DNA from: Opisthorchis felineus
Taxonomy: Eukaryota; Platyhelminthes; Trematoda; Opisthorchiida; Opisthorchiidae
Reading direction: 5' to 3'
Length of the DNA: 64,000 bases
Assembly: GCA_004794785.1 (NCBI GenBank)
Contig: SJOL01007428.1
Coordinates: forward strand, 455,375 to 519,374
In this document: piece by piece, positions 8,324 through 60,499 of the stretch
Layout of the letters: each line of letters opens with the position of its first letter
Numbering within the stretch: position 1 is the first letter of the stretch
Notes under the pieces: model-generated
Database searches by the model: none
What the model was told of the DNA's origin: nothing
What the model saw: the letters and a program-made list of their open reading frames with translations, nothing else
Translations under genes and position numbers: made by a program

Positions 8324-8900
8324 GTATGGAAATTTTTTAAGTCGTAATTGTTTTCAGTTGAATAAATACACCTAAAGGATTCAATTTTCGTCAAATTAAC
8401 TTGGCAGAGGCTTGCCTAACGTGTAATTATGAAAAGCCACAAAGCTCCCAGTTCCAAACTAGAGAAAATTATAATACTTCAGAAGACTAAACGACGTTCT
8501 CTGTTTGCTAGATAACTGGCTAGCTAAATCCGCTATCTGTCCACATAAACAGATTTTTATTTAAAAACAGTCCACAGGTAGTGAACTCAGCGTTATCGAG
8601 TCGAACTAACTAACCCATGATAAAGCTGTTACTTGTGCCGTTTTAATTGTTTAGACATTGAAGCTCTCCAAAAAATTCACTTCTATTCATCCCACGTCAA
8701 ATATTATGATGGATATCCAGTCTTATGTCATAATCAGCATGCTTATTACTCAGTAGAGAAAACCAACCACCAACAAATAAGCGAACGTTGTTCATTAGCA
8801 TACAAACGTCGACGATCGTACTAGGGTGGGAAGTAGTCACAGGCGGTTGACGTGATCGATACATCTTAGATATTCACATTTACGTCACTTTTGCTTGAAC

Positions 8901-9165
8901 AGTCCTCCTGCTATCTTGGATCCATTACTCTGGCGAGTCCACACAAAATGGGGAAAGCATTGGACTCAAGTCTCGCTCTTATTCGATCTCATCAGCAGCG
9001 CATGTACTTGGCTATTTCGGGGGTTGAACTCCTGAAATATGACACCAGTGCTCCGCCAGCGCACGCCAAACGCACCTGAGTTATCAAGTCGGGATAGCTG
9101 AAAGTGCTAACGATTGAGCGATGTGATTGATTTCCTTGACAAATGCCTTAGACTGTTCACCCGTC
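8901..9165 (-). mobile_element. tRNA-related SINE with hammerhead ribozyme, copy 1
   Basis: This minus-strand element aligns by eye with the copy at 11.3-11.6 kb over its whole length. In minus-strand order it has a shared leader (9165-9061), a tRNA-like part with an A-box-like segment near 9047-9060 and a B-box-like GAGTTCAACCCC (9022-9033), then a hammerhead ribozyme (8957-9001), then a tail ending near AGGAGGAC (8901). Known Sm-alpha SINEs of schistosomes have the same order of tRNA-derived Pol III promoter and hammerhead. Both promoter boxes carry substitutions, so the copy looks inactive. A 62-codon plus-strand open frame across it is a shadow. Confidence 0.7.
8957..9001 (-). ncRNA. hammerhead ribozyme, decayed core (SINE copy 1)
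   Basis: On the minus strand the CTGATGA core is at 8995-8989. Stem II is GATC/GAGC with loop GAATAA, and one pair is lost. GAAA is replaced by GAGA (8974-8971). Stem III is ACT/AGT closed by two bases. The cleavage triplet GTC ends at 8963. Stem I pairs GCGCTG (9001-8996) with CAATGC (8962-8957), five of six positions counting one G-U pair. The A-to-G change in the invariant GAAA should abolish cleavage according to known hammerhead chemistry. This copy preserves stems I and III better than copy 2 does. Confidence 0.65.
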
Positions 9166-9217
9166 CAGATGTGATAATTCAGGTGCGTGGTGGTACCACT
9201 TTCGTCTGTCGTATTAG

Positions 9218-9625
9218 ATGTGTGGGTTTCCATTCCTGGCCGTCGACAGATATGTGTTGCTGGTAAGATTCACTAAGAGCGATACTCAACTGCAGCACTT
9301 TTTCTCCTTCGTATGGACTCATAAGAATGATTACCTCGGGAAAGTAGGAAATATTTTCAAGCGCATCTATGCATATAACTCGTTAAGCCTATTTCTCCTG
9401 TGTGCCACAGTTTTTTGCTGGTACTTGAAAGCTTTTTTGTATTTCTACCGTGTCCATCCTGACCAGAATATCTTCTTACGATTTCTGAGGCTTCAACGAC
9501 AGGCCGTAATGCACGGTAGATCCGATGTTAGGCGAAATGATTGTGCCGTTCATATTGTGCCCCAGGTTATTTCATCTTGCATCTCGTTTAAAGAAGGACC
9601 GAAGCTCAAATCCCAACGTGACTAG
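9218..9625 (+). other. 135-codon open frame, probably chance
   Basis: An ATG-initiated frame of 135 codons with a hydrophobic middle (residues about 50-75) and a basic end. There is no recognisable motif and no good start context, and codon use does not differ from the flanks. It directly follows SINE copy 1. It is listed because of its length only. Confidence 0.12.
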
Positions 9626-10325: not shown

Positions 10326-11340
10326 TGACGGGAGGACGAGGGCTCATACTTATTATAGTTATATTTATTATACTTATTATCCAGTCAAAGCTGTAATCAA
10401 AAAGCTAACATTGACAACACTGCAAGATAACATTGTCAGCGGCACTGACAAAGAAAACAACTGGCCGTGGTGAGCTATGTGCACAGGCTCTCAGATTCAA
10501 GGAAAACCCATATCTAGTTTTATTATTCTTCCTAATTCAGGACCATCCTAACTGATGAGAAATCCCCAACTTCAGAATTACATTTTTACTACGTATATAG
10601 TAGATAGGACATATGGAGAAGAGGAGTCCGTTTTCTGTCGTAAAAATGAACAAGGTTCAAAATACAGCTGAAAATATGTATTTCTCAAAAACCCTTGAAT
10701 CTATGTTACTACAACTTAGGTGCTAAGATGAAGGGCTGGAAAAGCATACTTAGAGTTATAAATAGTTCAGGCTGTTCAGGTAGTTTTGCCTCCTGTACGG
10801 TAGTATAAACCGCCTTTCATCTGCATTTCATCTGTAATTTTATCTACATACCTCTTTACACTTGCATGAACATTTACAGCTTTAACTTCGACTAGCATTT
10901 GCTTGACTAAACATTTATTTTCTTAAGTTCCGAAAGCTTGCACTCCTGAAACTTTATTCAAAAATTAAGCTGATGAACTTCGTTTGGAAAATACTTCATC
11001 TTGGATAGCCTTTGTATGGTCAGAATAATTAATTACTGGAAAACCTAGAGATTGTATAGCTTAAGGCCATACAGTCCAAAGAGCAGAGCTTCGTCCGACT
11101 CAAACTATTGTCCTATTTGTTTATGTGCTTCGTTAGTTCATTAAGCATCATTCAAATTTTGTTTTTTAAAGTTCGACAAAATGGAAATTAGGGTAAAAGG
11201 TTGTGTCCTGTTGTTGGTGCATGATAGGCAGAAATACTCAAAGATCTGCAATCCACGTTAACATCAGTGTCGTTTGAACGGTCCTTCTCCTACCCTGGAG
11301 CAATTATTCTCATGAGTCATGCCAAACAAAGGAAGCATTG

Positions 11341-11373
11341 AACTTGAGTTTCGCTCTTATTGGAGCTCATCAG
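11341..11373 (-). ncRNA. hammerhead ribozyme with intact catalytic core
   Basis: The minus strand has the invariant CTGATGA (11,373-11,367), a perfect four-pair stem II GCTC/GAGC with loop CAATAA (11,366-11,353), and GAAA (11,352-11,349). Stem III is ACT/AGT around a CA loop (11,349-11,342). All core residues needed for catalysis are present. Stem I is poor: the bases before CTGATGA (CCAGA) do not pair with those after the cleavage site, and the cleavage triplet is GTT where copy 1 has GTC. The core is therefore intact but the copy may not cleave. Confidence 0.75.
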
Positions 11374-11397
11374 TCTGGTATATATATGGCTCTGTCA

Positions 11398-11409
11398 GGG
11401 ATCGAACTC
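11398..11409 (-). promoter_or_regulatory. Pol III B-box of SINE copy 2
   Basis: GAGTTCGATCCC on the minus strand fits the B-box consensus GGTTCRANNCC at all but one position. Together with the A-box-like segment at 11,441-11,454 it forms an internal Pol III promoter of tRNA type. Whether it is still used cannot be told from sequence. Confidence 0.55.
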
Positions 11410-11871
11410 CGGACGTCTGAGGGATGAGGCGAGCATGTAACCACTACTCCACCAGGGCACGCTGGGCGCGCTTGAAACATCACGTATGAAGAAACAAGCG
11501 TGTTTGCGCTTGGGCAATGTGATTAGTCTTCCCGATTTCTCAAACCACCCAGTAACTCTCACGGTTGTGTCGAATTTTCAACCTGTCTGTCAGTCCTCCC
11601 CTTTCAGGTAGCTCCACGGACCCTTGAAACCCGCCGGACAGATTTGATCAAGTAAAGTATCCTTTTTGACAAGTTCATCAGGTTACTTCTGCCTCTGACA
11701 AGACTAATTCACAGTAGCAGACAAACAATATGGATTGAAAAGGACCGATGTCGGCCACTCACAACGAGCCCTTTGTTCATTCAACCTCACACATAATAAA
11801 CTGTCGGTTTTAGTCCGGCCATCTTATTCGCGGCCTGCATACTTCATTCCACCCTCATCGTCAACTTATGA

Positions 11872-12309: not shown

Positions 12310-15300
12310 ACCAGGTGATCAGGCAATGCAGGTATTCTATGCGAACATAGCCCAACAGATCGAAAGGTAATTGTGAGCGAGCTGATCATTCTGCCTGCCG
12401 GTGTCAAAACGGTACGAAAGCATAATGCAGCAGAATTCTGTCGGATTTTACTTCCTCAATTAACATGAAAAATGTGATTTGATCCAAAAGTCATCCAGTT
12501 CTAGATATCGCCCAGCAAGATATTTCAAATCTAACGTCCTCTTGGAATTGGGATTCCAGACAATTCTACCATGCCCCCGAAGTTACTATCTTGTCTAGTC
12601 GGTTAGTTAAGCCATATTATTTCGCAGTGGACAATCTGGAAAAGTAAAGCAATCCGTAAAACGCACTTTCTTGGTTTAAAAAAGGAAGATGCGAGAGCGA
12701 AGGAAATCGACTTCACAATCAGGATTTCTCATACATAAGAGATCAGTCCACATGCACGCTTAATATCCCGTTACAGACAGACATGTCAATAAAAAACAAC
12801 AGCGATGTGCACTAATTTGACCGGAGCTATTAGGACAACTCTTTCAGATGAACGGCCAGCAGTCTAAATTATATGTATGTATACTGTGCAGCGGAATAAC
12901 TTATCGATGCATTTTTGATGAGCTAGTTGCTTGATTACCATCGGAAAGTTCTCAGCACATAACATGGCAAACTGTATTGGCTGTTATATTCAGAGACTTG
13001 GAAAACTGTGAATCATCCGGTGTTGTTATCTAGTGATGTTGTGTATTTCAGCATATTTGCTCCCCACACTGATAAGAAGGTGGACAGAAGGGAGACGAAA
13101 TGCGTGGTATTCACATGGAGTGAAAGCACTTAATAACAGGAAATTAAACCTGAGGTTATTTCCGGTGCTCTAACTGTGATCACTATTCGTCGGCAGGCTT
13201 CTAATTTTTTAATGAAAACAGAACGATGACAAATTGCGGTTTCAGCTTTCTCCACAGAGTTCGTAGAGTTCATTTTAAGATCTTAAGCCCCTCATCTGGG
13301 TGAAAAATAAACCACAAAATGAAAGTTGTAGACAGGGTGTGTCAGGGCAATGATCTAAGTGGGTGATATAATAAATGTTTACCAGAAATATGTCAGATCG
13401 TCGAAATCGTCAAATATGTATAATGGAGCCTGAAATCTCTAGGTATCGTAGGTACAAATCATACAACTTCTAAGAATTGAAGGCCTACAAAAATCCGCAA
13501 GATATTTTTTTAACGTTTTGAGGCAGGTCCCATGCCTCTGTGGAGCTTACCAGGACGGACAATTCTGACAGATGGTTTATCTGATCGATACAAATAGAGC
13601 GTTTAATGAATTAGATAGCCTAGAATAAATGATTGCCTTCTAGGGTGTGGCAGTTATGATCCGTCAAACATGACCTGATAGAGTAATGGTAACACTCACG
13701 AATTGCACGTGGCAATTTCCGACATTCAGATTCCGGCCACGAAAGGAGGAAGGTAGGTGAAACGGGAGCAAGGTAGATGCGGATCCTACAATTCCTGTAA
13801 CTAACCTAAGTAACTTAAGAACTTGATTTATAAACTTTGGACAAAACTTCTCCTCCAAACCGAAGTCTTTTGTCTAGCTTGACTGCTTTCAATGTGTATG
13901 CCAACACACTTGAGCCACTTTGGAATTTCGAACGGTGTCCGCTATTTTTGTGCTGCGAAAATATGCAGTTGCAGCACGCCATTATTATTTCACCACATTT
14001 TCTAAGAACAATGCCCTGTCAAAGGTCAGCACACCGTCCGTTCTGATTTTTTTCGAGGAGCAATATCTCCAGAACATGCTGTAAATTTGCTGTCCATATA
14101 GAGACACTAGGAGCTCAAAATGTGCACTTCCATGAAGTTAAAAAATGTGAATTGGTTGCGCATGAAAATAAATCTGCGCCTTTTAGTCCCTTACGAAAAA
14201 GTGCACTTCCGTTTAACCAGGCAACATGATTACCTAAGAGGCTTTAGTAATACATAAACTGGGATATCCAAAGACTGTGTGGTTACTACTCGTCATTGTG
14301 GACGGTATTAGGAGAGTTTAAGAATAATAAAGAACAAAAATATGAGAAAAAGGCCAAAAAATGGAAGAGCCCAATAAAAGCTAGTCGAAAGGCCAATCTG
14401 TGGTCTGGTTTCTACTAAGCGGTAAACACATTTTTGTGGCCGAAATTTTGTTCCTCGATAACTTACCATGCTGAGGAATAATATATCCCGGCCAGTTTTC
14501 TGGAATCGGAAAGAGCATGTCTTCTAGTGTGCAATTGTGTTTAGAGATTGCTTTTCTCTTTGCACACTTGGATACTGTTAGCTCTCGCCTGAGGACGCTG
14601 CATCCTGAACCATCACAGAGCCAGAACGACAGATTCAGTGACTGAAGACTTTCTGTGCTTTTTACCAGTAGTGCGTCGGATATCTTTTCTGTTGCATTAT
14701 TTCATTTCCGTTTCTATACCCTGCGTTTACTCTAACAATCTATTCTCTCGTGAGCGTGGCCGCAGTTCACCTTAAAACATTCTTGTGTTTGCTTGCTTCA
14801 TGTGTCACAACTTCTTTATTCGCTGCTCTATCTGCTTCACATTATCATGCACCCCGACAGGTCCATGTGGCCCTGGATCGTAAAGTGGGGTTTGCACATA
14901 TCAGCTACGGCTTTTTCTCAATTAGTGGTCACTCACGGACGATCTTTAACGATGAAGCCTTTCGATGACCTACGAATGAACAGTTGGTGGTTTGTATACC
15001 TAGAATATGTTCTGCTATCAGCTAATAAAACGACCGCTCAGCTTGTTGAAAATATGGGCAATTTGGCCATAGCGATTTTATACCATTAGGCAGCCCCCTG
15101 TCATACAGTTTCGAATAAATGATATGAGTGTAGTTTCAAACCAGATGACGTGGGTTCAGGTGTCAGAAAATTAACTTTCCTTGTCCTGGATTTTTCATAG
15201 ATTGTGGTTTCTTGTGCAAAATGGTAATTAGGGGTCATTTTAGTCGCCCAGAAATGCTAGCCGAGCAGCCATTTGAGCATAATATACACAACAAAGAGCG

Positions 15301-15990
15301 ATTGATTTACATTTTTGAGTTAGAAATGGTCTACCGCGAACTCTGGCCTGCGTCACAAATTTTTAACCAAACTTTGTTCTGACCTGCCAAATGAGTCTCT
15401 GATTATTCAAAAAAAAAATATTTGCGACAGTTGTTGATGAGCTTTGTGCATGACTTCCACAGTGTGGGCAAAAAGTGACATGTATACCTCTCCACCATTT
15501 CTCATTCAGGTTACGTTCGCGTGCTCCGTCGAACCCTCAATACTTCGATTAATCGTCACCACCATGGGTGTTCATGGCGAATCCAACAGGTGTGACACGT
15601 CCAAAAACAGATTATAGACATATGTTCCTTGAAAAATGGTGCCATTTGTAGACACGTCGACGCAGGTTATCTGTTTGTTATTTATTCACCACATGTTTAT
15701 CTCCAAAATTTCAGATTAGCTCTGGTTCCGCAAGTCCACAGGCCTGCTGTAATTGATACATTTGAGGCAAATGAAACGCAATGCACTATTTATTAATAAG
15801 TGTATGGCAAATGCCTACTTTTTCTACCGTTGGAATATTTTCGTGTTATCAATGATATACCCATTTATTCTAACCGGAAATAGGGAAGACATTTGAGTTA
15901 TTTGGTATGCAGATTTTCGGACAACCGAACATGTTGAAATGCGTAATCCCTGTTTCCACTTATGAATATTCATTCAGATTCTTGTCATTT
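12310..15990. other. no gene recognised
   Basis: AT-rich sequence with overlapping short open frames, the longest being 98 codons at 14,793-15,089 on the plus strand. None has supporting splice or domain evidence. No repeats shared with the rest of the window were noticed. Confidence 0.4.
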
Positions 15991-15992
15991 TT

Positions 15993-16140
15993 GCGGTCCT
16001 TCTCCTATATTGATGCAGTTGTTCTGGTTGTTCCAGTCCCAAAGGGGGAAAAAGTGGGCCTGGGTTTAACTCTCACTAGAGCTCATAAGTAGTGTATATC
16101 CTTCGCCGGTCCAGAAGTTGGACCCCAAAGATCTGGCTAC
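15993..16140 (-). mobile_element. tRNA-related SINE with hammerhead ribozyme, copy 3 (decayed, truncated)
   Basis: The tail (AGGAGAAGGACCG near 16,005-15,993) and the ribozyme block match copy 2. On the minus strand the core reads CTTATGA in place of CTGATGA (16,087-16,081). Stem II is GCTC/GAGT with a six-base loop, and GAAA has become TAAA. The tRNA-like part is hardly recognisable (a GGGGTCCAACTTC remnant near 16,113-16,125), and the leader seen in copies 1 and 2 is absent or unrecognisable. Two core mutations make it inactive. A plus-strand open frame ending at 16,092 is a shadow. Confidence 0.6.
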
Positions 16141-16347
16141 GAACGTTGTACACGGACATCATTGGCCCGAACTGGATGCACTAAATCACCACGTCTAACC
16201 AGGTAAAGGTGCTCATGCTTGAAGCATACAACCGGTTTATCTAATGCTTCGATTGCATCTATCAGAAATTTGTTTCTCAGGAATTTCAATTCGGGCATCG
16301 CAACGGATGATTGAAACATACCGGAAAATTGTTACCGGCTGTAGGTA

Positions 16348-50077: not shown

Positions 50078-51818
50078 GTAAGAAAAATCAATTTGACAAC
50101 CCTTCAACACCGTACTTGGTTAAAAGACTCAAGCTGTCGTGATCCACCAATGCATGTATCTAAAACTGAGTAGACAGCAAACGTAACATTAGCTAGGATA
50201 AAGCTAATTGACGTAGCAATGCGTCAGTGAAGAATCACAGAATCACACGAGTGGCAAGTCTGACGAGGCAGCAGAGGAAGTTAACAATTTCTTTCACTTT
50301 CTTTAACCGCGGACCTAACACATCCAAGGTTATGCAACGATACCAGAAATGAAAAACAAAAACCGAAGACGCGTTGGTTGTGTAAAAGCACTCCCCTGTC
50401 ATAGTAAACATACGACCTGAGTCAACACCTTCTGTGCACCCAGTGCTCGTAGATATATACTAATTGATATGGCCTTGGAAATTCTCAGAAACTTAGAATT
50501 AAGGTTCGACAAAAAAGACTTTGAAGGTCCAATACAGTGACCAGTACCAAAGAGGTGTTTCGCAGTCTTTGGCAGCGGACTTCCGCTTGACACCTGACCC
50601 GTGCATTTTAGTTGCATTACTCACTGCATCAGTTATTTCGGGACGTGTTCGGACGCTGAAGGGGATTGACCTCAGTCTGTTCTGCAAGTGTATGTCAGTG
50701 TAGCTGCGTGTGAGATATCAATCTACATGAAGCAAATAGAGAGTGGATGAAATACTTGTTCACCTGTGCATTGGAAGTCCTCTAGTGCACTAGACTCTAT
50801 ATAGAGCCGATTCCACCTTGTGTTTGAGGCCTTCTGCTGTATACCTAGACCATGTTGTTATCATGACATACATTAGGCAGTCGCTCGTTTAGCTTAATAA
50901 TCGTCATTGTTCGTCTTAGGGTATAATCTTGCAACTGGATATAGCAAAATATACTTAATCATATTGAGACCTATGTCTTCCCTCTACGTTAACATAGTGG
51001 ATTAAATGTACATGTATTAAGCTGGATTTTTCTAAAAGGATACGTTTGGTATGTAAGACACCATCAGTAGACGACACTGGGATGCGCATTGACAGTCACA
51101 CTGAAATTGGCCAAGCACTGTGTAAGAAGCTCACACAAAAAGTGATATTGAAATTGCTGTTGCTGCAGATGAATCACATAAGACCCGAGTCAACGTATTG
51201 CGACTCCAGCCTGGTTAGGAAAACCTATTCAGTCTCAGCACCAAAATGCCCTTGAAAATGTAAAGTGAGCATATTACTGGCGTAATTTGGATCCTTCAAT
51301 TGTACCCTCAAAATTGTGTAAATTTGCCTAAATGAACACGTGCACCTCCGTGGCATGATCATTTGGGTTCAAGAAAGTAAAAAAAACAAAGTAGAAAGGC
51401 GCCTTCATTTATTGTCGAGTTAAACAGTGAAAAGTGAATTCAGGTTGCTCGCATACAGACTATTTGTTCTATATTTTCTAACAAAAGGTAGACACTGTCA
51501 ATCCACAAACTGGCCTTGTTATTGCTGGAAATATATCCACTAGTAGAACGGAATCTTGCTACACAAAAGAACTGCAAGGTCATAGCTGCAAGTGAACCTC
51601 GGTTAAACAGACCACATCAGTCCAGACTGTGCACGTAAAAACATTGATAAATTTCCCCAAGATCGATCAACTGGCATGTATAAATCACTCAGGTCTTGTC
51701 TGTTCAACAACCGCTTATACGCCTTAGTGAACATTGTCCGCATATTGTACATCCACAACTAATAATAGTGAAAGAAACCTCTCCCCTCCGCAGCGTTTTA
51801 TCCAATCTATCTTGCCAT

Positions 51819-51862
51819 ATATCTATCCACCTACCTACCCACCTATCTATCTATCTATCCAT

Positions 51863-51911
<49 letters not shown>

Positions 51912-51912
51912 C

Positions 51913-51967
<55 letters not shown>

Positions 51968-52006
51968 CATCTATCTATCTATCTATCTATCTATCTATTT
52001 CTTATC
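51819..52006 (+). repeat. (ATCT)n microsatellite
   Basis: Nearly 190 bases of ATCT units, interrupted by three or four ATCC units and flanked on the left by CACCTACCTACC-type variants. Two long plus-strand open frames (51,696-52,100 and 51,734-52,045) exist only because the tetranucleotide contains no stop in those frames; they are not genes. Confidence 0.97.
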
Positions 52007-57599: not shown

Positions 57600-59600
57600 G
57601 AACTGACGAAAGTTAAACTGACCGGTGTGGCGGCTGCTTTGATTCTTTCGGCGTAGTTTCTGCCGTTCCTCCTCTGACTCCTCATTTCAACGACCTTTGA
57701 CCCACTTTAGTTTACCTCAGCCATTTGCATTGTTTAGTGAAGGCTTCCGAAGCGTAAATGAAACTTCGAGCCACGACTGAACAGTAGGACGAGTGGATTT
57801 CTGTCTTTCCGCGGATGTTATACCCCATGAGTGGCCGGTGATAATGTTCAAGTTCACTTCAGAGAAGGCCCCTGGTGCATTTAGTCGCTCACACGTATCT
57901 TCCAACGACCGAAAACCATGGCCCAGGTAGAACAATTCATGTAACCAACACGTTGACCACACTTTCTCAATCTGTTTTTTCAGGTTACATCGGTCCGCAG
58001 CCACAAGGATGCAAGCAATTAATAGTAGCTTTGTTTTGTGGTTGAGTCACTACTTCAGGCCCTTCCACCTTATAATCCCACAACCAAACCACCACTTTCG
58101 TTATACGGTAGTTATCTGATCAAAAGAGACCAGTTTGACACTTCAAGGAATGAATCTGCCTTCTTAATAAGCTGTTATACTACAAACTTAGGAGGGCAGC
58201 GTGCTTATCGCGTCTTCGTGGTTGTGTATCCGTCCACTAAGGGAAGAAGGAATATACATGTGTTGCCCCTGAATAACAATTTACTCGAAGTGGGAAAAAC
58301 GAGGAGATTTCTTTCAATGTTGGGCGAGGCAAAAAACCACAGCGATATCTCCAGCCTACCGATGCTGTTTCGAAAAGACGGGGGACAGTCTTTTTTACTT
58401 TTATTCTGGAACACAGCCAGAGGTACACGCTGCAACCTCAAACCGGCAGTTACAGGCAAACAACTGCGGTACTCATAGATTTTCCGAATAAACGACTAGT
58501 TTTCAGAATACTGACACTGAACGAAGCATCCCTGGCTCTGAATGAATAGCAATTTACGGGGATCGCACACAAGCAGTGACGTATCTTACGAGGCGCACCC
58601 GACGGTCACACAAGGTTTTACACTTCACACATGCCATCCGTTTTGCAAGGTGGCGAGCACCAAGAAGTCATGAAAAGGGCTGCGCCTTTCCGATGAATTC
58701 CAGGTGCCAGATATTTTATCCTTTTGGGATAGGGCACGGCTAGTAAAACAGCTCACTGAATATGGGCAGGTGGGCAGTGCTCAATCGCCGGCTCAGGAGA
58801 GTTACGGAGAATTACGGAGAAAGCACAAAACCATTGGCTACAACTGGCGCAATGGAAGTAGAATGGAGGTTTTCGGAGCAAATGCAGTATAGATATACAT
58901 GGCGGATGCACTGATTTGCACCACCATGACAGGCAGCAACACAAGGTTGTGTATGTGTCCCTCGGTAGCTGTGAAGCCGAATGGGATTGCTCTGCTCTTG
59001 CATCTTCTGTGCACCTGTGGTGCGGCAGTTACCACAACACTGTAAGACACCCAATAGCCCCAGAGGGTCAGACAGTTTGTCTTCTTTTGACTGTCATTAG
59101 TTGGTGCATGGCGTCAAAGTTTGAACACAGCCGAAAGAGTAAGCAGTGAATAAAATCTGGCTTAATGGTAACGAGGTGCAAGCTCAATAGCAATGTCAAA
59201 ATCAGGGTCAAAGAATAAAGGCGTAAGGGCCACAATGAAGAGCAGAAGTTCGACATCTTCGATATCGTTGTTAAACTCCGAAAACACGATGTGGGCGCCA
59301 GCGTCAGAAATAGGCCTACCGTCTTAAGGTAAGGCGGGACTTTGGATGTCTATCATGAAGGGCAATGACGCCAGGTCTAAGCTCAGTTAAACTGGACAAA
59401 ACTCGTGCACAAATAGGATGTCAGGTTAACGCCACGTAGTGAAAGATCTTATACCTCAGCTGAGAGAATAGTTTAAGCTTATCGACAGAAGTCATTGCCT
59501 AATGGAATATCAGGTCCAGAATGTTTTTCATGGATGCTATAGGAAACCTTCATGCACCCACGCTGATCCACACTGGTACCTATATAAGGCAATACTAATA
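57600..59600. repeat. repeat-rich, unclassified
   Basis: Several overlapping open frames on both strands (57,717-58,004 minus; 58,038-58,478 plus, 146 codons; 58,704-59,149 plus; 58,812-59,054 minus) without splice or domain evidence. Phrases such as GGTGGGCAGTGCTCAATCGC have the flavour of trematode mobile-element sequence, and GC is higher than average, but no second copy was found in the window to define an element. Confidence 0.25.
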
Positions 59601-59690
59601 ATTAGCGAAATACACTCATTTGCAAACAACTTTGGTTTTTGCGAGAGACACACCTGCAACCCAGCTGAATCTCTCGTCTGTGATGCTTCC
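59601..59690 (+). repeat. dispersed repeat, family R1, outer copy (left part)
   Basis: Matches the copy at 21.3 kb over most of its length and, in inverse orientation, 59,874-59,958. The right part (59,660-59,740) matches 34.3 kb. It lies outside the inverted pair formed by 59,771-59,832 and 60,033-60,095. Confidence 0.75.
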
Positions 59691-59770
59691 AGGCAACTGA
59701 ATGTGCTGCACCAGGCCGCCTCATGTTTCAGTTGCTACGATATTCGAGATATCGCGATACATGTATATTC

Positions 59771-59832
59771 GTGATGCACTACTCACAAGGTTGCTGAAAA
59801 CTCTTCGAGAGCCCACGATGAGTTTCGCCCTT
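59771..59832 (-). repeat. inverted-repeat arm (family R1, right part, inner copy)
   Basis: On the minus strand this arm reads AAGGGCGAAACTCATCGTGG and continues to AGTAGTGCATCAC. It matches 60,033-60,095 on the plus strand over about 62 bases. It contains the 3' half of the hammerhead seen in the other arm (GGGC, GAAAC, GTGGGC), but the CTGATGA half is not recognisable here. Confidence 0.75.
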
Positions 59833-59873
59833 GAAAATATACTACGATATCTCAAATAACGTGCTTGGTAATA

Positions 59874-59958
59874 TCACAAACGAGAGATTCAGCTCGGTTC
59901 CAGGTTAGTCACTCGCAAAAACCAAATTCGTTTGCAAAATATTGTACTTCGCTAATTT
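59874..59958 (-). repeat. dispersed repeat, family R1, inner copy (left part, inverted)
   Basis: On the minus strand it matches 59,601-59,690, including TTTGGTTTTTGCGAGTGA and GGAACCGAGCTGAATCTCTC. Together with the arm at 59,771-59,832 it forms an inverted unit lying between the two outer parts. Confidence 0.75.
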
Positions 59959-60011
59959 CATGCAATTTAGTCTCAAGTAGAACATAAGGTTGACGATAAC
60001 TCGGGGACTGC

Positions 60012-60054
60012 GCCTACCTGGTGAGCCCCAAGAAGGGCGAAACCGGTCGTGGGC
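60012..60054 (+). ncRNA. hammerhead ribozyme with minimal stem III, one core mutation
   Basis: Stem I pairs GCCTAC (60,012-60,017) with GTGGGC (60,049-60,054), six pairs counting one G-U. The core box is CTGGTGA (60,018-60,024), one change from CTGATGA. Stem II is GCCC/GGGC with loop CAAGAA. GAAA is intact (60,039-60,042). Stem III is a two-pair AC/GT closed by two bases. The cleavage triplet GTC ends at 60,048. Very short stem III is characteristic of hammerheads in Penelope-like retroelements. The A-to-G change in CTGATGA at an invariant position should inactivate it. It is a different family from the SINE hammerheads at 9.0 and 11.3 kb. Confidence 0.8.
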
Positions 60055-60095
60055 TGTCGAAGAATTTTCAGCAATCTTATGAGTAGTGCATAACC
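60033..60095 (+). repeat. inverted-repeat arm (family R1, right part, outer copy)
   Basis: Plus-strand partner of 59,771-59,832. It begins inside the hammerhead (60,033) and continues through TCGAAGAATTTTCAGCAA to AGTAGTGCATAAC. The two arms are separated by about 200 bases that include the inverted copy of the left part. Confidence 0.75.
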
Positions 60096-60499
60096 AATAC
60101 TAATAATGTTCATTCTCAACCGGTGGGCGGCATACCGTCAGGCATGATCATAATGGCACAGTGAGAACAAAGGCGCGGCTGATGTTATTTAAGGGTACTC
60201 AGGAATGCCGAAAGCGGGACAGTCACACAAATAGTGAGCATTATCCGACGCAGATGATGTCGTGCCTAAACTGGCGCGATCTAAACGTGGTTAACCCCAA
60301 AGGCAGAAAAATACAGTTAGTAGGGATTTTTCATCTATTAAGGAGCATCAGATTTAATCAGGATCAAAGCTGAACAATTTAAAGGTGGTGGGCAACAACC
60401 CAACGTGGGGAACGCAGAACAATGATCCCGCCTACGCGGGACAAGAGACTCCCAATTGCGAAACAAGTATCCAGAGCAATAAATCTGGAAAAGCATCAG

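What the first reader, a model, noticed from the sequence alone, without database searches (positions are those of the whole stretch)
11276..11560. Sm-alpha-like SINE: tRNA-type promoter followed by a hammerhead with an intact core
On the minus strand an A-box, a near-consensus B-box and then a hammerhead with perfect CTGATGA, stem II and GAAA occur within about 115 bases. This layout is known from the schistosome Sm-alpha SINE. If the element is from another flatworm lineage, it would extend or refine that family.
Basis: partly seen in the sequence, partly recalled or inferred. Interest (0 to 1): 0.75.

Follow-up and report, generated by a model that had tools for sequence, protein, structure and literature searches.

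The report
SINE-like liver-fluke repeat with hammerhead
A short jumping gene carrying a self-cutting RNA motif, of a kind known from blood flukes, is abundant in a liver-fluke genome, although the copy in this window has lost a part the motif needs to work.

Summary
On the minus strand lie A-box-like and B-box-like stretches and a hammerhead (HHR) core; Rfam HH9 matches 11341-11373, though below its gathering score. The core is intact, but stem I forms only 1 of 6 pairs, so this copy is probably dead.

It is a decayed copy (11258-11640, 75% to consensus) of a 432-bp family with very roughly 27,000 pieces in a 630-Mb genome. A host gene there is 100% identical to Opisthorchis felineus. The consensus HHR has all core bases, stem I 6/6, stem II 4/4 and a GUC site; 62 exact copies exist. 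Copies are dispersed, often 5'-truncated, and 11 of 39 tested show flanking repeats. The tRNA-like part sits mid-element.

The layout matches Sm-alpha; descent from it could not be tested. New here: (1) the stem III arm is palindromic, and folding predicts a hammerhead in the dimer, not in the single RNA; (2) 10 of 40 copies carry an inverted, overlapping second piece at most 30 bp upstream.

Best explanation: a non-autonomous retroposon whose uncut RNA is the insertion template, while the HHR cuts RNA dimers or multimers. Activity is inferred.

The parts
11258..11640 (-). whole element copy, consensus positions 2-389, 75% identity
   Evidence: blastn of the family consensus
11463..11640 (-). 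5' module upstream of the tRNA-like part (consensus 2-182)
   Evidence: shared by full-length copies L003, L005, L008, L010, L020, L023
11387..11462 (-). tRNA-like region (consensus 183-257)
   Evidence: consensus called as a pseudo-tRNA by aragorn only at its most relaxed setting tried; best score 52 to 23 recalled tRNAs against at most 38 in 100 shuffles; window limits placed by eye
11441..11454 (-). A-box-like stretch TGGTGGAGTAGTGG
   Evidence: literal string; a generic A-box pattern does not hit here
11398..11407 (-). B-box-like GTTCGATCCC
   Evidence: pattern scan, only hit in the window
11335..11379 (-). type I hammerhead region; predicted cleavage between 11341 and 11340 (GUU triplet)
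   Evidence: Rfam HH9 27.3 bits, below the gathering score 52; consensus HHR fully paired
11349..11373 (-). intact core: CTGATGA, stem-loop II, GAAA
11374..11379 (-). 5' strand of stem I, damaged (ACCAGA; consensus GCACTG)
   Evidence: 1 of 6 pairs
11335..11340 (-). 3' strand of stem I (CAATGC; consensus CAGTGC)
11258..11334 (-). 3' part of the element
8870..9144 (-). second copy (consensus about 109-395) with a mutated HHR; one half of a head-to-head pair
9150..9363 (+). third piece, inverted relative to 8870-9144 and about 5 bp from it
   Evidence: 9187-9363; 9150-9350
13629..13737 (+). weak fragment, consensus 162-251
15972..16328 (-). old copy, consensus 1-54 and 132-390

Best explanation
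The element is a decayed copy of a non-autonomous, SINE-like retroposon of an opisthorchiid liver fluke (Opisthorchis felineus by a host gene). Shown: a 432-bp consensus made of a 5' module (1-182), a tRNA-like part (183-257), a type I hammerhead (267-311, cleavage 305|306) and a 3' tail ending in ...CACAACAGAAACA; dispersal in many copies, frequent 5' truncation, and target-site duplications in a part of the copies. Inferred: its RNA is reverse-transcribed at the target from the 3' end by a protein supplied in trans (LINE or Penelope-like; not identified). Inferred: the hammerhead is blocked in single RNAs and becomes active when two copies pair, because the stem III arm (ACUCGAGU) is palindromic; it would then trim multimeric or dimeric transcripts, while uncut RNAs are the templates that insert. 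The copy at 11258-11640 is a fossil with a broken stem I.
For: Copies: 42 listed matches of the window segment, itself included, from 1447 first-look candidates of which 40 were scored. Density: 8 of 20 stretches carry a piece, 184,714 non-N letters, about 27,000 per 630 Mb. HHR: 62 exact genome copies of the 45-nt consensus, control 0; 21 of 40 aligned copies fit catalysis by my criteria (a biased set). Retroposition: exact flanking repeats of 7 bp or more in 11 of 39 copies, against a mean of 1.7 and a maximum of 6.2 in 500 permutations. Truncation: starts from consensus 1 to 163, 9 of 40 at 5 or less. Uncut templates: 6 of 10 inverted partner pieces run across 305|306; the other 4 do not reach that part. 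Dimer gate: single-RNA minimum -14.8 kcal/mol with core CUGA paired, hammerhead shape -9.9; the two-RNA minimum -39.1 is a double hammerhead; in the full-length fold the core is again paired, to 299-303. Species: SLX1 100% over 193 aa to O. felineus, 87% to Clonorchis. Precedent for palindromic stem III in repeat hammerheads: PMC3088659 passages.
Against: No RNA or cleavage data. Inserted copies show no selection on the HHR: non-CpG change 0.102 (23 of 225) in HHR and 0.102 (76 of 742) elsewhere in the 10 inverted partners; 0.241 (61 of 253) and 0.239 (256 of 1070) in the 8 random-stretch copies; the lower HHR rate in the 40-copy set is a search bias. 28 of 39 copies show no exact flanking repeat of 7 bp. 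No autonomous partner was found. The tRNA-like part begins about 180 bp inside the full-length element, so a start set by that promoter would not explain copies that begin at consensus 1. The A box is weak. Folding energies are predictions; the stem III palindrome could be partly chance.
Confidence: 0.7

Rival explanations
1. It is a direct relative of Sm-alpha inherited from the trematode ancestor, with the same biology: a Pol III-transcribed element that forms tandem satellite arrays as well as dispersed copies.
For: Same order of A box, B box and type I HHR (schistosome layout: PMC2576457 passages); tRNA origin and high copy number also in Schistosoma (PMC2770079 passages); S. mansoni too has dispersed partial copies (PMC8490949 passages).
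Against: The S. mansoni array unit is 332-335 bp (PMC8490949 passages), here 432 bp; only 3 places have two exact core words at tandem spacing (the total number of exact cores was never obtained). The tRNA-like part is closer to recalled Ala/Pro/Gly (52/52/51) than to Gln (42/38), while the S. mansoni family is given as tRNA-Gln-derived.
Confidence: 0.3
2. It is a retrozyme-like element that spreads through circular RNA made by double cleavage of tandem transcripts.
For: Self-complementary positions 123-388 and a fold of the whole consensus better than 100 of 100 shuffles (z -3.4), as described for metazoan retrozymes (PMC4918200 passages); tail-to-head junctions in L009 and possibly L027; 3 head-to-tail pairs.
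Against: No copy in the 40-copy set begins or ends at the cleavage site; 9 of 40 start at consensus 5 or less and all 40 end between 375 and 432 (the query spanned the site, so main copies had to cross it, but 6 of 10 partner pieces cross it too).
Confidence: 0.2
3. It is a terminal part of a longer LINE or Penelope-like element, and the copies are its 5'-truncated remains.
For: Variable 5' truncation with common 3' ends; Penelope-like elements with RT and GIY-YIG exist in this genome and one has a hammerhead-like motif 3' of the nuclease (L063).
Against: 9 of 40 copies share a 5' end at consensus 1-5, and those compared have unrelated DNA upstream; the three Penelope-like loci tested (L062-L064) show no blastn similarity to the family.
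Confidence: 0.1
4. Chance: an accidental motif.
For: The Rfam score is below the curated cut-off.
Against: 62 exact genome copies of the consensus HHR with control 0; 0.02 expected cores per window.
Confidence: 0.005

Closest known systems
Sm-alpha (W36.2) of Schistosoma mansoni and Sj-alpha of S. japonicum
   Same: tRNA-type A and B boxes followed by a type I hammerhead; thousands of copies (PMC2576457, PMC2770079, PMC8490949 passages)
   Different: Liver fluke instead of blood fluke; 432 bp instead of 332-335 bp array units; found here as dispersed copies, with 3 head-to-tail pairs; tRNA-like part mid-element and less like Gln; homology untested
Metazoan retrozymes (non-LTR)
   Same: Type I HHR, non-coding, highly self-complementary RNA (PMC4918200, PMC7761336 passages)
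   Different: Insertions seen here are not permuted at the cleavage site; circular RNA not shown
Double (dimeric) hammerheads of newt satellite RNA, avocado sunblotch viroid and Aedes/Nematostella repeats
   Same: Palindromic stem III that can pair between two ribozymes (PMC3088659 passages)
   Different: Not tested in vitro here; sits in a dispersed tRNA-type element
Hammerheads of Penelope-like elements
   Same: Minimal motif with short or no stem III (PMC6155905 passages)
   Different: No blastn similarity to the three Penelope-like loci fetched here
Twin-priming inversions of LINE-1 (recalled)
   Same: 5' end of the insertion carries an inverted piece; in 4 of 10 a repeat of 7 bp or more flanks the whole pair
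   Different: Inverted and direct pieces overlap in all 10 cases (18-178 nt), which one RNA copied once cannot give

Membership tests
Sm-alpha / Sj-alpha | tRNA-type Pol III boxes directly upstream of a type I hammerhead | tested here: met
   the A box is only A-box-like
Sm-alpha / Sj-alpha | sequence homology to Sm-alpha outside the motifs | not testable with these tools
   no Sm-alpha sequence at hand; source papers not held
Sm-alpha / Sj-alpha | derivation from tRNA-Gln (S. mansoni) | tested here: inconclusive
   Ala 52, Pro 52, Gly 51, Gln 42 and 38 against recalled tRNA sequences
Sm-alpha / Sj-alpha | tandem arrays of about 335-bp units | tested here: inconclusive
   3 head-to-tail pairs with exact core words at 432-type spacing; the 330-type spacing search did not complete
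SINE | short, non-coding, dispersed, with target-site duplications | tested here: met
   11 of 39 copies with repeats of 7 bp or more; 62 exact HHRs on many contigs
SINE | Pol III head at the 5' end | tested here: not met
   tRNA-like part at consensus 183-257 of 432; hence 'SINE-like' only
SINE | 3' tail shared with a LINE partner | tested here: inconclusive
   44 tail matches listed, 40 of 2837 candidates scored; their surroundings could not be fetched
Hammerhead ribozyme, type I | CUGANGA, GAAA, three stems, NUH site with open stem I | tested here: met
   met by the consensus; not met by the window copy (stem I 1 of 6)
Hammerhead ribozyme, type I | self-cleavage | not testable with these tools
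   needs in vitro transcription
Retrozyme | circular unit-length RNA intermediate | not testable with these tools
   needs RNA
Retrozyme | insertions permuted at or bounded by the cleavage site | tested here: not met
   0 of 40 main copies and 0 of 10 partners begin or end there; the main set was selected to cross the site

The most novel reading that the evidence does not exclude
The hammerhead is a dimerisation device. Two element RNAs pair through swapped stem I and the palindromic stem III (helped by the 266-nt self-complementary rod), travel together into one target-primed reverse transcription complex, and are copied from both ends of the same break, which yields the head-to-head paired insertions; the ribozyme is active only in that paired state and so limits or resolves dimers and multimers.
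Probability: 0.12. Interest if true: 0.78.

Novelty: new variant of a known kind. Interest (0 to 1): 0.5.

Why it matters
In the held open-licence library, 0 papers contain both 'hammerhead ribozyme' and 'Opisthorchis'. A Fasciolopsis paper calls SINEs not widespread in flukes (PMC6191129 passages), though small SINE fractions are reported for Fasciola transcripts (0.76%, PMC11270206 passages) and for O. felineus repeats (0.4%, PMC6530080 passages); the latter paper set aside repeats it could not classify. A second fluke lineage with a tRNA-hammerhead element lets one ask whether this pairing is ancient or arose twice, and what the ribozyme does for a retroposon: here the insertions seen come from uncut RNA, so cleavage is not how those templates were made.

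Tried and rejected
Selection on the HHR: the 40-copy set showed less non-CpG change in the HHR (0.038) than in the other parts (0.078 to 0.178), but those copies were collected by words shared with a query whose best-kept stretch is the HHR. A first check with 18 extra pieces (some poorly aligned) and 12 random or window copies gave 0.183 versus 0.166 and 0.237 versus 0.248; the cleaner check with the 10 direct inverted partners and the 8 random-stretch copies gave 0.102 versus 0.102 and 0.241 versus 0.239. Rejected.

Snap-back of one cDNA as the source of inverted pieces: read by eye, the join points show no mirror relation; only L014, with inverted flanks as well, fits, and it was left out of the target-site test.

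A Penelope-like element as direct source: no similarity in L062-L064. Rfam hits other than HH9 near the locus (asX2, ceN111) are far below their cut-offs. The HH9 hit at 60003-60067 first looked like chance coding sequence; it proved to be another repeat family. A COX1 search for the species found nothing in the genome. Pfam scan of 10 long frames found only a collagen and a reverse transcriptase.

Never answered although tried: genome count of cores with a variable loop; 330-type tandem spacing; genome search with the 5' module; glutathione transferase search.

Full report
OBSERVATION. The minus strand around 11276-11560 was read. An A-box-like TGGTGGAGTAGTGG lies at 11441-11454 and a B-box-like GTTCGATCCC at 11398-11407. 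The A box is weak: a generic A-box pattern hit 62 other places in the window and not this one. A hammerhead core follows: CTGATGA at 11373-11367, a 4-bp stem II with a 6-base loop, and GAAA at 11352-11349. Rfam HH9 covers 11373-11341 with 27.3 bits (E 8.3e-5 for 401 bases, 0.013 for the window; gathering score 52), so nothing is listed at the gathering threshold. Core + stem II + GAAA occurs once in the window; 0.02 are expected by chance. It misses one thing: stem I is ACCAGA against CAATGC, 1 of 6 pairs, and neither the single nor the paired minimum-energy fold of the window copy is a hammerhead. The copy is therefore most likely inactive.

WHOSE GENOME. The window lies in a 630-Mb genome of 1848 contigs. 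A reverse transcriptase fragment (L046) has its best named relatives in Opisthorchis viverrini and Trichobilharzia (120 of 329 hits listed). Two exons of the DNA-repair gene SLX1 in L061, joined by eye (193 aa), are 100% identical over their length to an O. felineus protein (a second O. felineus entry of the same gene name: 94%), 87% to Clonorchis sinensis and 62-63% to Schistosoma. I take the genome to be O. felineus or something indistinguishable at this gene; one gene was used. A COX1 search found nothing.

THE FAMILY. The window segment 11276-11470 has 42 listed matches in the genome, itself included, out of 1447 first-look candidates of which 40 were scored. I hold the 39 other long ones (L002-L028, L049-L060) and with the window copy L001 aligned 40. 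The first 28 gave a consensus, extended at the 5' end by eye with full-length copies to 432 bp: 5' module 1-182, tRNA-like 183-257, hammerhead 267-311 with predicted cleavage at 305|306, 3' part to 432. The tRNA-like part aligns to recalled tRNAs with score 52 (Ala, Pro), 51 (Gly), 42/38 (Gln); shuffles reach at most 38. Aragorn finds a pseudo-tRNA there only at the more relaxed of two settings, and no tRNA in the window at the tool's setting. In 20 stretches of 10 kb taken at round coordinates on contigs that had a hit, 184,714 letters are not N and 8 of the 20 carry a piece, 7 of them at E 1e-5 or better. That is about 27,000 pieces per genome, with a wide error (8 counts) and contigs not drawn at random. 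The exact 45-nt consensus hammerhead occurs 62 times, the reversed control 0 times.

HOW IT MOVES. Of 39 copies (L014 left out because its flanks are themselves an inverted duplication), 11 have an exact flanking repeat of 7 bp or more; 500 permutations of flanks give a mean of 1.7 and at most 6.2. Some of these repeats overlap up to 5 bases of the element end, as did the control; the other 28 show none of that length. Copies begin anywhere from consensus 1 to 163 (9 of 40 at 5 or less) and end between 375 and 432, 11 at 395-402 and 15 at 429-432. The query covered about consensus 172-374, so later starts could not be seen in this set; in the random set starts are 1, 11, 151, 167, 203, 262, 292 and 297. 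In 10 of 40 copies an inverted piece of the same family lies within 30 bp upstream, in 8 of these with a 0-1 bp join. Repeats of 7 bp or more flank the whole pair in 4 of the 10: L018 (12), L049 (12), L054 (13) and L055 (7), so those pairs probably entered as one event. Inverted and direct pieces overlap in all 10 (18-178 nt), unlike classical twin priming on one RNA (recalled). The halves share more variants than any control in L054 (8 shared; control maximum 3.1 of 39) and L050 (2; maximum 1.7 of 32); L053 has 6 (1 of 39 controls reaches it) and L025 1 (3 of 39 reach it); in the other six (L004, L009, L013, L018, L049, L055) sharing is absent or within the controls.

THE RIBOZYME. In the biased 40-copy set 21 copies keep what catalysis needs by my criteria. 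Among the 12 random and window rows, read by eye, the only one that keeps both core boxes is the finding itself, and it lacks stem I. Change in the hammerhead equals that elsewhere once the search bias is removed: 0.102 and 0.102 in the 10 inverted partners, 0.241 and 0.239 in the 8 random-stretch copies, so inserted copies decay as if neutral. The consensus arm ACUCGAGU is palindromic. Predicted energies: single RNA -14.8 kcal/mol in a shape that buries the core, hammerhead shape -9.9, two RNAs -39.1 in a double hammerhead with 8-bp stem III. In the full-length fold (-150.3 kcal/mol, z -3.4, 0 of 100 shuffles as good) stems I and II form and CUGA 273-276 pairs with 299-303. Positions 123-388 form an imperfect palindrome. 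Dimeric hammerheads with palindromic stem III are on record for repeat-type hammerheads (PMC3088659 passages).

MECHANISM, SHOWN AND INFERRED. Shown: structure of the family, dispersal, target-site duplications in a part of the copies, truncation, paired insertions, and templates that cross the cleavage site uncut (6 of 10 partners; the other 4 do not reach it). Inferred: transcription from the tRNA-like boxes or from outside; trans-acting reverse transcriptase; dimer-gated cleavage. A promoter at 183-257 would start near 183, yet full-length copies start at 1, so at least part of the templates must come from transcripts started upstream. Head-to-tail pairs exist: 3 places with exact core words at the expected spacing (no denominator, since the single-core count did not complete).

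COMPARISON. Sm-alpha/Sj-alpha: same layout; differs in length, arrangement and probable tRNA source; homology not testable here. Published unit and array figures are from passages of PMC8490949, tRNA-Gln origin and copy counts from passages of PMC2770079, boxes A and B from passages of PMC2576457. Retrozymes: passages of PMC4918200 and PMC7761336. Penelope hammerheads: passages of PMC6155905.

WHAT IS IN PRINT, as far as searched in the held open-licence library: 0 papers with 'hammerhead ribozyme' and 'Opisthorchis', 2 papers with hammerhead, Fasciola, retrotransposon and ribozyme, both on S. mansoni; one search was not exhaustive (30 of 1,695 listed), and searches were seen as listings. The O. 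felineus genome paper (passages) gives SINEs as 0.4% of repeats and does not contain the word ribozyme. Subscription papers, among them the original Sm-alpha paper, could not be read, so an earlier report cannot be excluded.

The selection control was redone with cleaner sets, the A-box miss and the 28 copies without a long flanking repeat were added, and the overall confidence went from 0.72 to 0.70 for that reason.

Noticed in passing
window 59600-60120 (HHR 60003-60067, +): A second repeat family with its own hammerhead (Rfam HH9 32.7 bits, below the cut-off 52). The consensus of 17 rows has CTGATGA, stem II GCCC/GGGC, GAAAC and a palindromic ACCGGT arm with hardly room for a monomer loop; the two-RNA fold is again a double hammerhead. 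32 hits in 12 of 20 random stretches, more than the family studied here.
   Followed up: partly
L063 (about 908, minus; 2588-2793) and L064: Penelope-like elements with RT and GIY-YIG nuclease; L063 has a hammerhead-like motif 3' of the nuclease, and a stretch upstream of its RT is weakly similar (59-76%) to the second repeat family of the window.
   Followed up: partly
window 8870-9363: Another head-to-head pair of the studied family, pieces about 5 bp apart.
   Followed up: partly
L014 1-600: Pieces of the family within an inverted duplication that includes flanking DNA; fold-back product or assembly artefact.
   Followed up: no
window 51805-51998: ATCT tetranucleotide array, 48.5 copies.
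   Followed up: no
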